This document shows, in pieces, positions 13,324-31,815 of a DNA stretch of 64,000 nt. The notes under the pieces are model-generated. The model was not told the DNA's origin, searched no databases, and was given only the letters and a program-made list of their open reading frames with translations. This stretch comes from Nitrososphaerota archaeon (GTDB lineage Archaea; Thermoproteota; Nitrososphaeria; Nitrososphaerales; Gagatemarchaeaceae). How positions within the stretch are numbered: position 1 is the first letter of the stretch; the number at the start of each line of letters is the position of its first letter. The stretch spans positions 1-64,000 of the forward strand of contig JACQFN010000013.1 in assembly GCA_016200045.1 (NCBI GenBank), given 5' to 3'. The position numbers and the translations under genes were made by a program.

Positions 13324-13644
13324 CCTTTCTTGAAGAAAAGAGGCTCGTGAGAGCGATTTCGATTCGCAACAGGCGGTGTTCAGACGCCTTGTTGACCTCC
13401 CAGATGAGCCGTCAGAGTTCACCCCGGTGGAGCTTGCTCCGCTGGAGACGAAGGGAGGCAGAGTTGTCCCCCGGGGCTCAGAGGGAGGCGGTAAAGGGAG
13501 TGTGGGAGGGAGCGGACATTTCCAGCTTCGAGCCATTCCTCTATCCGGTCCTCAAGGTCGACCTCCTCCTCAGGCGGAGAGGGAGGTCCGTCCTCCTCGG
13601 CGGGAGGACCGGTCGGGAACTTTCGCTCTGACCGGTGCCGAAGG
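13324..13644. other. 321-bp stretch without a secure gene
   Basis: Between the thioesterase remnant and tRNA-Ser. A minus-strand frame ending at 13419 includes an acidic segment (PPEEEVDLEDRIEEWLEAG) that could be a small protein, but its upstream part overlaps the tRNA and no start is clear. Nothing else is recognisable. Confidence 0.35.
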
Positions 13645-13740
13645 CGCCGGGGGTAGGATTCGAACCCACGCGACCCGAAGGTCACGGGCTGTCCAGGAAG
13701 GCGCTCAAGGCCCGCGCATTAACCACTCTGCCACCCCGGC
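13645..13740 (-). tRNA. tRNA-Ser (TGA) with a 13-nt intron
   Basis: The acceptor stem is perfect (GCCGGGG with CCCCGGC, G discriminator at 13645). The T-arm is GTGGG-TTCGAAT-CCTAC, and a long variable arm (GACC-TTCG-GGTC) marks it as type II. The anticodon stem CGGGC/GCCCG encloses 20 nt instead of 7. Removing 13 nt (13691-13703) after position 37 gives the loop CTTGAGA with anticodon TGA at 13705-13707. The intron position, directly 3' of position 37, is the canonical archaeal site. Confidence 0.9.
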
Positions 13741-26871: not shown

Positions 26872-27600
26872 TTGGGTTCGTTCTTCGCGGGAGTCAAAGC
26901 AGGCACCCTGGCCGGGGTCCTCTACATCGGCGGGCTTGTCCTCTTCAACGTCGCCCTGCTTTTCGCGTTCAAGGCGGACGCGCTGTCTGTGATTTCGAAG
27001 AACTATACTGGGATCTGTCCCCCCGTCGCCGCAGCAAACATGACTAGCGCCGATGACTGTTTCGGCTGGGTGGTCTCGATATTCCCGGAATACCTTGGGT
27101 TCGCCGGCTTCTTTGTCACCCTGGGCTTTTCAGGCCTGTTCGGGGTCTACTACGACTCCCTCCCCGGAAGGGGACCGGTGCCAAAGGGAGAGACGGCTGC
27201 CATCCTCGTAGGACTGAGCCTCGTCCTCCTCGGGATAGCAGGGGTATCCTTCACTCCGTTCGTGTCGGCCGCCTTAGGGACTTTCCTCGTCGCCTGGACA
27301 TTCGTCTTCGGGGTCGCGCTCGGCAGGCTGTATGCCCGATACACCAGGAAGGTCCGTCTTGAGGGTCCGGCAAAAGGGGAAGCAAGCATAATGGTAGACG
27401 GGAAGGACTTCACGGGGAGGACAAGGACCTTCGCGGTGAAATCGGTCCACCAGCTCAGGGCGGAGGTCGGGGGAGGGATGTCGTTCAGGGGGTGGACGGT
27501 CAGCGGGGGCGTTTCCGTCGAGGACCAGAAGTCCTTCGAGACCGAGATGGAGGTCAACGGAGACGGGCTACTGAAGCTCGAGGTCTCTGACAAGTATTAG
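26872..27600 (+). CDS. Hypothetical membrane protein with cytoplasmic tail domain
   Basis: The 242-residue protein has four membrane segments (residues ~5-33, 74-97, 110-128 and 130-155). An extracellular loop contains a Cys pair (ICPPV and DDCFGW) after the first segment. A soluble C-terminal domain of about 85 residues follows, rich in beta strands (SIMVDGKDFTGRTRTFAVKS). The start is TTG at 26872. It is probably co-transcribed with the peroxiredoxin. No family recognised. Confidence 0.65.
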   Translation: MGSFFAGVKAGTLAGVLYIGGLVLFNVALLFAFKADALSVISKNYTGICPPVAAANMTSADDCFGWVVSIFPEYLGFAGFFVTLGFSGLFGVYYDSLPGRGPVPKGETAAILVGLSLVLLGIAGVSFTPFVSAALGTFLVAWTFVFGVALGRLYARYTRKVRLEGPAKGEASIMVDGKDFTGRTRTFAVKSVHQLRAEVGGGMSFRGWTVSGGVSVEDQKSFETEMEVNGDGLLKLEVSDKY

Positions 27601-27634
27601 CCTAATGTCGAACGACGATACGTCTTCGGCCTAA

Positions 27635-27642
27635 GGTTATAT
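27635..27642 (+). promoter_or_regulatory. TATA box of the small Cys/His-rich gene
   Basis: The sequence gttatata is 26-33 bp upstream of the GTG at 27668, a textbook archaeal TATA position for a leaderless gene. It supports the short gene being expressed. Confidence 0.65.
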
Positions 27643-27667
27643 ACGAAAGACAGCAGAGCAACCTGAA

Positions 27668-27820
27668 GTGCGCGTCATCGCTACCGCGGATGAGACATAC
27701 TGCCTGAAGACCCAGAGTCACACTAACTTCTGCACGGGGATCAATCACATCTGCTACAGGTGCGGAATGCTCAGGGGCCCCTGCCATCACAGGAAGCTCG
27801 GCACCCTTCTGGACTACTAG
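27668..27820 (+). CDS. 50-residue Cys/His-rich protein, probable zinc-binding
   Basis: This short frame from GTG 27668 to TAG 27818-27820 encodes 50 residues with five cysteines and five histidines or near-metal residues. They cluster as YCLKTQSHTNFC, HICYRCG and GPCHHRK, the pattern of a compact zinc-binding domain. It has its own TATA box at the leaderless distance and normal codon use. It overlaps the convergent GNAT stop by four bases. The function is unknown; small zinc proteins of this kind often bind nucleic acids or proteins in archaea. Confidence 0.6.
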   Translation: MRVIATADETYCLKTQSHTNFCTGINHICYRCGMLRGPCHHRKLGTLLDY

Positions 27821-28287
27821 GGCTGCTTCCCGAAGTGCTGGACGAGTGAGCGGAAGCCGCGTTTTGTGTAGAACTTGTACCCGATTTCGTTCTGGGTCGG
27901 GACCTCCGCGACGATGACCCTTGCCCCCATCTTCTTGAGGTCGCGGGTGGCGCGTTCTAGCATGTCATGCCCCAGCGCCCTCCTGCGGTGTTCCGGGAGG
28001 ATGTAGAAGTCGGTGATGAACCCTTCGGGGCTGGGCTCATAGAACATCCTCTCCCTCATTTCGGCCCTCAGGACCCCCACCACCTTGGGACCCTCGGACG
28101 CGACTAGGAGCAGTCTGTCGTCTGCGTCCAGCGAGGCGACGACGTATCTCTCCGCGCGCGCCCTCGCGCCTTCGACGACGGCGAACATTGGGTCGAACTC
28201 GTTGTTGAGCCGCTTTGTCCTGACTATGAGGTCTGCCGCAGACGATGCGTCCCCCTCCGTCGCTGGTCGGATCTTGACCCCGGGCAC
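27817..28287 (-). CDS. GNAT-family N-acetyltransferase
   Basis: Starting from GTG 28287 the protein is 156 residues (VPGVKIRPATEGDA...). Core strands are KVVGVLRAEM and EGFITDFYILPEHRRRALGHDML; the acetyl-CoA loop is present but reads RRRALG rather than RGxG. The second half has EVPTQNEIGYKFYTKRGF, usual for RimI-like enzymes. A TATA element (minus ctttaac, 28311-28317) is about 26 bp before this GTG, which is why I prefer it to the longer start at 28335 that would overlap the malic enzyme stop. The substrate is unknown. Confidence 0.82.
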   Translation of the reverse strand: MPGVKIRPATEGDASSAADLIVRTKRLNNEFDPMFAVVEGARARAERYVVASLDADDRLLLVASEGPKVVGVLRAEMRERMFYEPSPEGFITDFYILPEHRRRALGHDMLERATRDLKKMGARVIVAEVPTQNEIGYKFYTKRGFRSLVQHFGKQP

Positions 28288-28318
28288 GGCCCCCGGTCCG
28301 CTCCGACTCGTTAAAGGC

Positions 28319-29650
28319 TTAGTCCGGTGGCTCAATGATTACCCCGCTCTTCCTGAGGGTGTCCATGGTCTTTCGCGAATGCTCGATGACTTCGGTTGCG
28401 GTCTTGAGTAGCTCGTCCTTGGAGGACTTCTTTCGCGCCTCCCCCTCTCTCACCGCGGCTTCCCCGACGGTGGCGGCTACGCTGGGGTAGACCTGCCAGT
28501 CCACCATCGAAGGCAGGATCCGCCGTCTGCTGATTCCCTTGCGCTTCGCGAAGCTCGCCAGCTCCTTGGCGGCCGAAATCACCATCGTGTCCGTGATCCT
28601 CCTTGCCCTGACGTCCAAAGCACCCCTGAAGATCGCCGGGAACAGGAGGCTGTTGTTCACCTGGTTCGGATAGTCCGAGCGGCCAGTTGCCACGACAGCG
28701 GCCCCGGCCGCCAGGGCGTCTTCCGGGAGCATCTCGGGGACCGGGTTGGCGAGCAGAAAAACAATCGAGTCCTTGCTCATCTCCCTGACTTCTTCCTTCT
28801 TGACGAGGTTGGGGCCGACGCCGGCGGCCGCTACGAGCACGTCGGCGTCCCTGAGCGCCTCCTTCAACCCGCCACTCCTCCTCTCCCCGTTGGTGGAGAG
28901 GGCGAGGTCGTACTTCCACTTGTTCCTCAGTGAAAGGCTGTCGATGTCATCACGCTCGGGTTGGAGGATTCCCTTCGAATCAAGTACGACGAGGTCCTTC
29001 GGGTCGGCCCCGGCCTTGACCAGAAGCCTGGCAGCGGCCACGTTTGCGGCACCCGCGCCGAAGAGGACTATCTTGGTCCCCCGAAGCCTTCTCCCCGTAA
29101 GTTCGAGGGCGTTGAAGAGACCTGCAAGGACCACGCCCGCTGTCCCCTGCTGGTCGTCGTGCCAGACGGGGATCTCCATCTCCCGCGTGAGCGTGTCGAG
29201 GACCTCGAAACATATGGGAGACTCGATGTCCTCGAGGTTCACCCCGCCCAGGGATGGTTCGAGGGCGCGGACCACAGAGATTAGGTGGTCTTCGTCCTTC
29301 GCACGTATAGGTAGAGGGTATGCGTTGACGCCTCCCAGGTAGTTGTAGATCAACGCCTTGCCTTCCATGACGGGGAGCGCGCCCTCGGGGCCGATGTCGC
29401 CCAGTCCCAGCACTCTGGTACCGTCTGAAATTACGGCGATGGTGTTCCATCTGCCCGTGTATTCGAATGAGAGGTCCGGGTCGGCAGCTATCGCCCGCGA
29501 GACCGCGGCCACCCCCGGCGTGTACCAGATCGAGAAATCCTGCAACGACCGGACCGGGACCTTCGGGGAGATTCCGACCTTCCCGCCGTAGAACCTCGAG
29601 TAGGCGAGCGCCTTCACGGAGGGGTCGTCCTTGGTCCTACTCTTGGGCAA
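28319..29650 (-). CDS. NAD(P)-dependent malic enzyme
   Basis: Oxidative decarboxylation of malate to pyruvate. From TTG 29650 the protein is 443 residues, the size of short malic enzymes. Signatures are the catalytic Tyr region IWYTPGVAAVSRAI (near residue 40), the Lys in MEGKALIYN, metal ligands in ICFEVLDTL and VWHDDQQGT, and the nucleotide loop VLFGAGAANVAAA. A TATA element (minus tcaaataatc, 29671-29680) lies ~26 bp before the TTG; the longer open frame overlaps the copper ATPase promoter and is not real coding. Paired with the pyruvate phosphate dikinase at 47545, it could feed gluconeogenesis. Confidence 0.92.
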   Translation of the reverse strand: MPKSRTKDDPSVKALAYSRFYGGKVGISPKVPVRSLQDFSIWYTPGVAAVSRAIAADPDLSFEYTGRWNTIAVISDGTRVLGLGDIGPEGALPVMEGKALIYNYLGGVNAYPLPIRAKDEDHLISVVRALEPSLGGVNLEDIESPICFEVLDTLTREMEIPVWHDDQQGTAGVVLAGLFNALELTGRRLRGTKIVLFGAGAANVAAARLLVKAGADPKDLVVLDSKGILQPERDDIDSLSLRNKWKYDLALSTNGERRSGGLKEALRDADVLVAAAGVGPNLVKKEEVREMSKDSIVFLLANPVPEMLPEDALAAGAAVVATGRSDYPNQVNNSLLFPAIFRGALDVRARRITDTMVISAAKELASFAKRKGISRRRILPSMVDWQVYPSVAATVGEAAVREGEARKKSSKDELLKTATEVIEHSRKTMDTLRKSGVIIEPPD

Positions 29651-29731: not shown

Positions 29732-29763
29732 ACCAGGCGACCTTGGCATCGTTCCTGACTGGC

Positions 29764-31815
29764 ATGGCAAAGGACCCGATCTGCGGGATGCACGTGGAAG
29801 AGAGCGGGGAAGCCCTGAAGACTTCGAGGAAGGGGACGACCTTCTACTTCTGCAGCGACACGTGTCTGCTGACATTCGTCGCACCCGAGAAGGAGATCGC
29901 CCTGCTCAGGAGGCTGACTGTGCTCAGCTTTGCCCTGGGCGTCCCGGTGTTCTTGCTGACCTGGTTCGTTGCCCTTCCTAATCCGCTCCCTCAGAACGTA
30001 GTCCTGTTCGCGCTCGCTACCCCGGTCCAGCTCGTGGCCGGTTCGATGTTCTACAGGGGAACCTGGCACGCCCTGAGGGCCAGGGTGGCGAACATGGACA
30101 CTCTCATCGCTGTTGGTACGAGCGCCGCCTGGCTGTACAGCGCGGTCGTAACCTTCGTCCCGGGGTTCTTCCCGGAAGGGACCTACTATGACGTCTCGTC
30201 TCTCATCATCGGGTTCATCCTCCTCGGCAAACTCTTGGAGCACGAAATGCGGGGGAGGGCGTCAGACTCTGTCAGGAAGCTGCTCAACCTCAACCCCAAG
30301 AACGCGGTCGTAATCAGAGGGTCCGCCGAGGTCACGGTGCCCGTGGAGGAGTTGCAGGTAGGGGACGTCATGGTGGTAAGGCCGGGGGACGGGGTTCCGA
30401 CCGACGGTGTCATTACCGAAGGCCAGGGCGCGCTGGACGAGAAGATGCTGACAGGTGAGAGCATACCCGTCGACAAGGCGGAGGGGGACGAGGTCTTCGG
30501 AGGAACGATAAACAGGGACGGGCATCTCAGGGTAAGGGCGACAAAGGTGGGAAGCGACACGACGCTCTCCCAGATAGTCAAACTGGTGGAGGCCGCTCAG
30601 GCCGCGCAGGCGCCAATCCAGAGGGTCGCGGATAGAGTTGCGTCGTACTTCGTCCCAATCGTGGTTCTGATCGCGGTCGGGTCTCTCCTGTTCTGGTACA
30701 TGGCCGGCGCCGGGGCACTCCACGGGTTCACGGCCTTCATCGCCGTGCTGATCATAGCCTGCCCGTGCGCCCTCGGGCTCGCGACCCCGGCCGCGATAGT
30801 GGTGGGGACGGGGAAGGGCGCGTCAAACGGGATACTCGTCAAGGGAGGGGAGGTCCTGGAAAAGGCGAAGAACGTCGACGTGGTGGTGCTCGACAAGACG
30901 GGAACCGTGACCAAGGGGGAGCCCGAACTGGTCGACCTTGTCCCTCTGTCTGGGTTCTCAGAAGGCGAGTTGCTCCGGCTTGCAGCCTCCGTAGAGTCAG
31001 GGTCTGAGCATCCTGTGGGCCTCGCCGTGGTCCGCGCAGCAAACGAGAGAGGGATATCCCTCGGAAAGCCTGAGGCGTTTCGCGCAGAGCCCGGGCTGGG
31101 AGTCCGGGCCGACCTGGAGGGGAGTCAGGTGATGGTGGGGAGCAGGAGGCTGCTCGCCGGTGCAGGTGTCGGGCTCGGGGAGGCAGAGGCGGTGGTTTCG
31201 AAGCTGGAGGCCGAGGGGAAGACCGCTGTGGTGGTGGCGGCCGCAGGCAGGGTGGCGGGGGTGCTCGCGGTCGAGGACACGGTCAAGACGGGAGCGAAGG
31301 AGGCGGTCGCCGCGCTCAAGGAACTGGGGCTCCGGGTGACGATGCTGACCGGTGACAACGGGAGGACCGCCCGGGCGATAGCTGCGGAGGTGGGGATAGA
31401 CGACGTCGAAGCCGAGGTGCTCCCGGCCCAGAAGTCGGAGGCGATAGCCAGGCTGAAGGGGGAGGGACACGTGGTGGCGATGGTGGGAGACGGGATCAAC
31501 GATGCGCCGGCGCTGGCGGGCGCTGATTTGGGAATCGCGATCGGGAGCGGTACTGACGTGGCAATAGAGACAGCCGGGATCGTCCTCATCAGGAGCGACC
31601 TCAGAGACGTGGCCGGGGCGATAAGGCTCAGCAGGGCGACCATGTCGAAGATAAGGCAGAACCTCTTCTGGGCGTTCGCGTACAACACAGTGCTCATTCC
31701 GGTAGCTGCTTCGGGCTTTCTGAACCCCATTCTCGCCGGGGTGGCGATGGCGCTAAGTTCGGTGAGCGTGGTCGGCAACTCCCTCTCTCTCAACCGCACG
31801 AGGCTAGGCCGTTGA
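29764..31815 (+). CDS. copA: Copper-translocating P-type ATPase with N-terminal YHS domain
   Basis: A P1B-type heavy-metal pump of ~683 residues. It opens with a YHS-like metal domain (DPICGMHVEESGE, then YFCSDTC) instead of the usual HMA ferredoxin-like domains. The ATPase core has TGESIPV, the membrane metal motif CPC in IACPCALGLATP (near residue 333), the phosphorylated Asp in DKTGTVT (near residue 377), the SEHPVG motif and GDGINDAPAL near residue 575. CPC plus YHS fits copper or silver export. The start is set by TATA spacing. It stands alone, divergent from malic enzyme. Confidence 0.93.
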   Translation: MAKDPICGMHVEESGEALKTSRKGTTFYFCSDTCLLTFVAPEKEIALLRRLTVLSFALGVPVFLLTWFVALPNPLPQNVVLFALATPVQLVAGSMFYRGTWHALRARVANMDTLIAVGTSAAWLYSAVVTFVPGFFPEGTYYDVSSLIIGFILLGKLLEHEMRGRASDSVRKLLNLNPKNAVVIRGSAEVTVPVEELQVGDVMVVRPGDGVPTDGVITEGQGALDEKMLTGESIPVDKAEGDEVFGGTINRDGHLRVRATKVGSDTTLSQIVKLVEAAQAAQAPIQRVADRVASYFVPIVVLIAVGSLLFWYMAGAGALHGFTAFIAVLIIACPCALGLATPAAIVVGTGKGASNGILVKGGEVLEKAKNVDVVVLDKTGTVTKGEPELVDLVPLSGFSEGELLRLAASVESGSEHPVGLAVVRAANERGISLGKPEAFRAEPGLGVRADLEGSQVMVGSRRLLAGAGVGLGEAEAVVSKLEAEGKTAVVVAAAGRVAGVLAVEDTVKTGAKEAVAALKELGLRVTMLTGDNGRTARAIAAEVGIDDVEAEVLPAQKSEAIARLKGEGHVVAMVGDGINDAPALAGADLGIAIGSGTDVAIETAGIVLIRSDLRDVAGAIRLSRATMSKIRQNLFWAFAYNTVLIPVAASGFLNPILAGVAMALSSVSVVGNSLSLNRTRLGR

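What the first reader, a model, noticed from the sequence alone, without database searches (positions are those of the whole stretch)
27668..27820. 50-residue Cys/His-rich protein with its own promoter
The frame is too short for most gene callers. It has a TATA box at the leaderless distance, chromosome-like codons and a dense Cys/His pattern (YCLKTQSHTNFC, HICYRCG, GPCHHRK) consistent with zinc binding. It is tail-to-tail with a GNAT gene. I do not recognise the family.
Basis: seen in the sequence. Interest (0 to 1): 0.5.

Follow-up and report, generated by a model that had tools for sequence, protein, structure and literature searches.

The report
Conserved zinc-type microprotein, private promoter element
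A real, overlooked 50-residue protein, probably zinc-binding, is conserved in one family of uncultured archaea, and its promoter carries a DNA element shared almost only with one other tiny cysteine-rich protein gene.

Summary
The frame recurs in 29 of 46 genomes of its taxonomic family (13 of 15 high-quality ones), is under purifying selection, and sits tail-to-tail with a GNAT gene. No library family matches. C12, H18, C29 and C32 are invariant in 26 of 26 distinct rows (probable zinc site).

New here: the promoter, placed for a leaderless transcript, carries GNCGAA about 30 nt before the TATA box, with an imperfect repeat 22 nt on. A promoter model run over 46 genomes gave 59 matches: 30 at this gene, 26 at a second small CxWC...CxxC protein gene (40 aa in this genome) and 3 elsewhere. 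Each gene keeps the element in genomes where the other was not found. I read this as a dedicated two-gene regulon of zinc-finger microproteins, probably controlled by a third factor.

Zinc binding, the regulator and the function are untested. Archaeal small zinc-finger proteins are a known kind; this ligand pattern and this shared element I did not find described.

The parts
27668..27820 (+). 50-aa Cys/His microprotein (family 1), GTG start, TAG stop
   Evidence: relatives in 29 of 46 family genomes; alignment A2, 26 distinct rows; purifying selection
27701..27703 (+). C12 codon, first invariant metal-ligand candidate (others: H18 27719-27721, C29 27752-27754, C32 27761-27763)
   Evidence: invariant in 26 of 26 rows
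27731..27733 (+). C22 codon, second-site candidate (others: H27 27746-27748, C39 27782-27784, H41 27788-27790)
   Evidence: all four in 9 of 26 rows, C22+C39 only in 2, none in 15; pairwise loss on tree
27637..27643 (+). TATA box TTATATA, 31 nt before the start codon
   Evidence: TATA 29-34 nt before the aligned start in 24 of 26 distinct rows
27607..27612 (+). upstream box GTCGAA (GNCGAA), 30 nt before the TATA box
   Evidence: 30-nt spacing in 23 of 26 distinct rows by pattern; genome searches
27629..27634 (+). second, imperfect copy (GCCTAA here; often GYCGAA in relatives), 22 nt after the first, next to the TATA box (BRE position)
   Evidence: self-match peak at shift 22 in family-1 promoters
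27817..28335 (-). GNAT-family acetyltransferase, tail-to-tail neighbour, stop codons overlapping
   Evidence: Pfam PF00583 E 2.4e-14; in 27 of 31 loci compared
26872..27600 (+). upstream neighbour, 242-aa protein with hydrophobic stretches, unknown function
   Evidence: only a sub-threshold Pfam match, DUF6789; present beside the site also where the small gene is absent

Best explanation
The ORF encodes a genuine, lineage-specific zinc-finger microprotein. Shown: conserved coding frame, invariant C12/H18/C29/C32, a second ligand set C22/H27/C39/[CH]41 present in the outer genera of the family and lost pairwise in one sub-clade, a TATA box placed for a leaderless mRNA, and an upstream element (GNCGAA about 30 nt before TATA, with a copy 22 nt on) that in whole-genome searches marks almost only this gene and one other small CxWC...CxxC protein gene. 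Inferred: one Zn(II) bound by C12, H18, C29 and C32 holds a zinc-ribbon-like fold; a second metal is bound in the ancestral form; a common DNA-binding regulator uses the repeat beside the TATA box to switch both small proteins on or off together; the proteins then act as small adaptors on nucleic acid or on the transcription or translation machinery, as proposed for archaeal small zinc-finger proteins such as Brz.
For: Conservation and selection. Invariant and co-lost ligands. Synteny with GNAT in 27 of 31 loci and malic enzyme in 26 of 31, some loci being duplicate contigs. Promoter: 23 of 26 rows with 30-nt spacing. R1, built on family-1 promoters only, gave this gene's promoter as best match in 7 of 7 genomes, and its only other match (E 0.47) was the promoter of the second family. 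R2, built on both families: 59 matches in 46 genomes, 30 at family 1, 26 at family 2, 3 elsewhere; all 49 at E<=0.01 are at the two families. All 6 members not used in R2 were matched, though two of them only at E 0.11 and 0.22. A family-1-only matrix ranks family-2 promoters far above 153 other promoter-like sites; the four best of those 153 proved to be family-2 promoters too. Direct repeat at shift 22.
Against: No zinc, RNA or protein measurement exists. Models are of low confidence (pLDDT 68, pTM 0.4) and match no solved fold significantly. 45 of the R2 targets trained the model, and not every first-look candidate was scored. The short pattern GNCGAA-N24-TTWWATA also hits 12 sites upstream of other frames among 42 matches. 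At least six of 21 family-2 promoters score inside the background with the family-1 matrix. In family 2 the shift-22 repeat is weak (3.70 of 9 against 3.35 at shift 15). The neighbours persist without the gene, so the context gives no functional clue.
Confidence: 0.6

Rival explanations
1. Metal or redox buffer: the protein is a Cys/His metal buffer, chaperone or redox switch, co-regulated with the second small protein by a metal- or oxidant-sensing regulator. It does not touch nucleic acids.
For: Four to eleven Cys/His per protein. A peroxiredoxin lies two genes upstream and a heavy-metal P-type ATPase with a YHS domain at 29743-31815.
Against: The neighbours have their own transcription units and the peroxiredoxin block persists without the gene. 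Four ligands suffice in 15 of 26 rows. CxxCG with flanking strands resembles structural rather than buffering sites (inference).
Confidence: 0.2
2. The family-1 protein is itself the DNA-binding regulator of the repeat: it controls its own gene and the second one.
For: Element sits at both genes; Brz precedent for a small zinc-finger protein affecting a neighbouring gene (PMC2253796).
Against: Family 2 keeps the element in all 8 genomes where family 1 was not found, three of which (G031, G034, G068) have the flanking block intact without the gene; in G034 the match is partial and weak. Family 1 keeps it in all 13 genomes where family 2 was not found. Draft genomes limit this.
Confidence: 0.12
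3. The element is not an operator but a core-promoter architecture, for instance a doubled BRE recognised by a particular TFB paralogue, kept in two promoters by descent.
For: The second copy occupies the BRE position; spacing to TATA is rigid.
Against: It is nearly exclusive to two genes out of whole genomes.
Confidence: 0.2
4. Chance ORF or conserved RNA instead of a protein.
For: Short ORFs are abundant here.
Against: Frame-specific purifying selection and codon-position entropy 0.79/0.66/1.35; invariant Cys/His set.
Confidence: 0.01

Closest known systems
[quoted passage not shown] PMC2253796, sections 7 and 14 read)
   Same: Under 100 aa, one CxxCG half-site, proposed roles in DNA or RNA interaction, easily missed in annotation.
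   Different: The invariant partner is C-x5-H, not a pair separated by 2-3 residues; no sequence similarity found in the libraries; a dedicated two-gene promoter element.
C(P)XCG u-proteins of Haloferax volcanii (PMC11241148 passages; PMC6562870 abstract and outline; PMC10716476 search listing only)
   Same: Single-domain proteins under 70 aa with Cys pairs; many give condition-specific phenotypes.
   Different: Those carry two C(P)XCG motifs; family 1 has only one. 5 of 14 tested proteins of that set did not bind zinc, a warning for this case.
Zinc-ribbon domains of transcription and ribosomal proteins (weak Foldseek matches; chain identities recalled)
   Same: Predicted strand - CxxCG knuckle - strand.
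   Different: All matches have E 1.5 or worse.
RING/cross-brace zinc domains (definition recalled)
   Same: Eight candidate ligands in four pairs, with pairs 1+3 kept and 2+4 lost, as an interleaved two-site arrangement would give.
   Different: Much shorter spacings, C-x5-H first pair; no profile match.

Membership tests
[quoted passage not shown]
   C29-x2-C32-G33 invariant in 26 of 26 rows
CPxCG-related small zinc finger proteins (Tarasov 2008) | Second Cys/His pair separated by 2-3 residues, 7-40 residues from the first | tested here: not met
   The invariant partner pair is C12-x5-H18; H18-x3-C22 exists in 11 of 26 rows but lies only 6 residues from C29
CPxCG-related small zinc finger proteins (Tarasov 2008) | Shorter than 100 residues | tested here: met
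   50 aa
Haloferax C(P)XCG u-proteins | Two C(P)XCG motifs | tested here: not met
   One only in family 1
Any zinc finger | Binds Zn(II) | not testable with these tools
   Needs purified protein and metal analysis
RING/cross-brace domains | Eight ligands in interleaved two-metal topology | tested here: inconclusive
   Order and pairwise loss fit; model confidence too low and coordinates not available
Pfam, NCBIfam, PHROGs families | Profile match above cut-off | tested here: not met
   Best E over 26 members: Pfam 0.0094, NCBIfam 0.022, PHROGs 0.031

The most novel reading that the evidence does not exclude
A dedicated regulon of just two zinc-finger microproteins: one promoter element, unlike other promoters of these genomes, is kept on two unrelated tiny genes in different parts of the chromosome by an unidentified regulator, and one of the proteins is a 50-residue two-metal, cross-brace-like fold whose second metal site was dismantled step by step in one lineage.
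Probability: 0.3. Interest if true: 0.65.

Novelty: new variant of a known kind. Interest (0 to 1): 0.5.

Why it matters
Small zinc-finger proteins are numerous in archaea, but how they are controlled is little known. A promoter element confined to two of them gives a concrete handle: the factor that binds it can be fished out, and co-expression predicted. The stepwise loss of a four-ligand set offers a natural experiment on what a second metal site is for. The small frames are also worth adding to annotation of these uncultured archaea.

Tried and rejected
Library searches (Pfam, NCBIfam, PHROGs, PDB sequences) gave nothing significant. Fold searches gave only matches with E 1.5 or worse and none with Z 2 or more. 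A scan of viral contigs found no relative. Outside the taxonomic family: in 155 of 201 order genomes that are not of the family, 9 had only partial matches at E 0.001-0.05; in 398 phylum genomes the only match outside the family was G109, E 9.6e-4, covering 22 residues around CYRCG in a different small CxxC...CxxC protein.

I first took the element to be unique to this gene, from exact-pattern and R1 searches. That was wrong: the two extra exact matches and R1's one extra match lie at a second small gene. The idea that the short pattern alone marks microproteins was dropped: 12 of 42 matches lie elsewhere, against 4 matches of the reversed pattern.

The tree used a malic-enzyme query in the wrong frame, noticed through the refusals; it was redone and is not used. 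The earlier quick tree placed L016/L035 differently and counted two losses of H27/41 instead of one. In one search my filter left four family-2 promoters among the background. I took the gene upstream of family 2 for leuS from memory; the profile search says valine--tRNA ligase.

Full report
What is there. The ORF at 27668-27820 (+) encodes 50 residues and ends in a TAG that overlaps the stop codon of a GNAT gene on the other strand. The window is G000:C18:1-64000 of a 1.54 Mb draft genome in 25 contigs. Eight relatives fetched by name carry record titles such as 'Thaumarchaeota archaeon', 'Nitrososphaerota archaeon' or plain 'archaeon'. I suspect the group I.1c / Gagatemarchaeaceae side of that phylum but did not test it.

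It is a gene. With one protein as query, 32 of 61 relatives matched at E<=1, 28 of them at 4.7e-8 or better. With the alignment, 29 of 46 genomes of the taxonomic family match: 25 of 31 in the genus and 4 of 15 in other genera. Among genomes at least 90% complete and at most 5% contaminated, 13 of 15 have it. Substitutions follow the frame: dN/dS is 0.03-0.23 in 7 of 9 chosen close pairs (2 saturated), the median is 0.33 in frame and above 1 in the shifted frames, and third codon positions are the most variable. Outside the family nothing convincing was found in the order (155 genomes) or in the phylum sample of 398.

Context. In 27 of 31 loci compared the GNAT gene follows tail-to-tail, and in 26 of 31 a malic enzyme follows that; some loci are the same contig or genome. 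In four genomes (G031, G034, G067, G068) the block peroxiredoxin - membrane-like protein - GNAT - malic enzyme is present and the small gene is absent between them. Six same-genus genomes without the small gene also gave no GNAT match, so there the whole stretch is missing or unassembled. The gene is therefore inherited in place, can be lost cleanly, and is not tied to its neighbours.

Ligands. C12, H18, C29, R31, C32, G33, L44, G45, L48 and D49 are invariant in 26 rows. C22, H27, C39 and a Cys or His at 41 occur together in 9 rows, C22 and C39 alone in 2, none in 15. On a tree of four neighbouring genes that holds 24 of the 26 rows plus four genomes without the gene, H27/41 changes once and C22/C39 changes once, in nested branches with support 97/94 and 96/92. 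Rows from other genera all have the full set, so loss is the simpler direction; the root itself is not inferred. An earlier quick tree gave two changes for H27/41. The order of the pairs is what an interleaved two-metal fold would show, but this rests on two events only.

Structure. Two AlphaFold runs gave pLDDT 68 and a strand - CxxCG knuckle - strand pattern. No fold match was significant. PMC11241148 (passages seen) warns that such predictions do not depend on the cysteines and that 5 of 14 tested proteins of that kind were zinc-free.

Promoter. In 24 of 26 distinct rows a TATA box begins 29-34 nt before the aligned start. The exceptions are L006 (36) and L014 (36, but 30 from an in-frame ATG two codons upstream). 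In 23 of 26 rows a GNCGAA-like box lies exactly 30 nt before TATA; by eye the spacing is 31 in L004 and L011 and 27 in L006. Within the family-1 promoters, the box matches itself best at a shift of 22 nt: 4.88 of 9 positions against 1.44-2.92 at other shifts. In family 2 the peak is lower, 3.70 against at most 3.35.

A second target. The pattern GNCGAA-N24-TTAWATA gave 10 matches in 9 genomes, 8 at this gene; the other two lie 30 nt before the start of another small ORF. That protein, family 2, is about 40 aa with C-x-W-C and C-x-x-C invariant. It occurs in 24 of 46 family genomes including the window's own (G000:C3:27170-27289), and weakly in two genomes of other families. In 17 of 23 loci it lies between valS and an aldo/keto reductase gene; in 4 of these 17 it is turned round, and in both orientations it runs tail-to-tail into the next gene. 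Its median dN/dS is 0.35 in frame and above 1 in shifted frames, but most pairs (150 of 231) are saturated.

How exclusive the element is. A sequence model of 45 promoters from both families gave 59 matches at E<=10 in 46 genomes: 30 at family 1, 26 at family 2 and relatives, 3 elsewhere (E 0.115-0.23). All 49 matches at E<=0.01 are at the two families. Most of these trained the model. Six that did not were all matched: G021:C3 2.2e-5, G033:C4 1.6e-4, G013:C43 and G029:C79 (same upstream sequence) about 0.002, G066:C67 0.11 and G034:C19 0.22 (partial). The last two are no better than the three unrelated matches. Not all first-look candidates were scored, so weaker members may be missed. As an independent test, a matrix from family-1 promoters alone, without TATA and BRE, was applied to family-2 promoters: 15 of 21 exceed the 95% quantile of 153 promoter-like background sites and 12 of 21 exceed the best site that is really background (7.8). 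The four sites above that in the background set are themselves family-2 promoters, one from another taxonomic family (L196, G052). At least six of 21 score inside the background. The rows are related, so the p-value (1.7e-11) overstates the case.

Who regulates. Of 46 genomes, 16 have both genes, 13 only family 1, 8 only family 2, 9 neither. In the 13 and in the 8, the gene present still carries an R2 match (weak in G034, G035 and G066). Three of the 8 have lost family 1 with its neighbours in place. So neither protein alone accounts for the element; a third factor, or a specialised core promoter, is likelier.

Verdict. A real, unnamed zinc-type microprotein in a known class of archaeal small proteins, but with a ligand pattern that fails the strict definition of that class (PMC2253796, sections 7 and 14), and with a shared promoter element that I did not find described in searches of the held papers (listings).

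Noticed in passing
G000:C3:27170-27289 (L147; L181 for context): Second small protein in the window's own genome, MQ...CIWC...CSDCLVPLPTE, between valS and an aldo/keto reductase gene, with the same promoter element.
   Followed up: yes
L157, L158, L162, L163 (G015, G002, G026, G005): Family 2 is inverted within the same valS - aldo/keto reductase interval in these four loci, yet keeps its own promoter.
   Followed up: partly
G030:C37 and G030:C50; G062:C10: G030 holds two family-1 copies from different clades, and the family-2 copy of G062 has the same upstream sequence as that of G013 although the genera differ: possible mixed bins.
   Followed up: no
window 29743-31815 (+): Heavy-metal (copper-type) P-type ATPase with an N-terminal YHS domain.
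   Followed up: no
window 13643-13740 (-): ARAGORN calls a tRNA with a four-base anticodon (gagc) and no amino acid; perhaps a normal tRNA with an intron.
   Followed up: no
L112, L115 (G109, G085): Small CYRCGKFIGE...CGKC protein in another family of the order, similar only around the CYRCG knuckle.
   Followed up: partly
G013:C43, G029:C79 (L167, L168): A diverged paralogue or relative of family 2 that also carries the element.
   Followed up: partly
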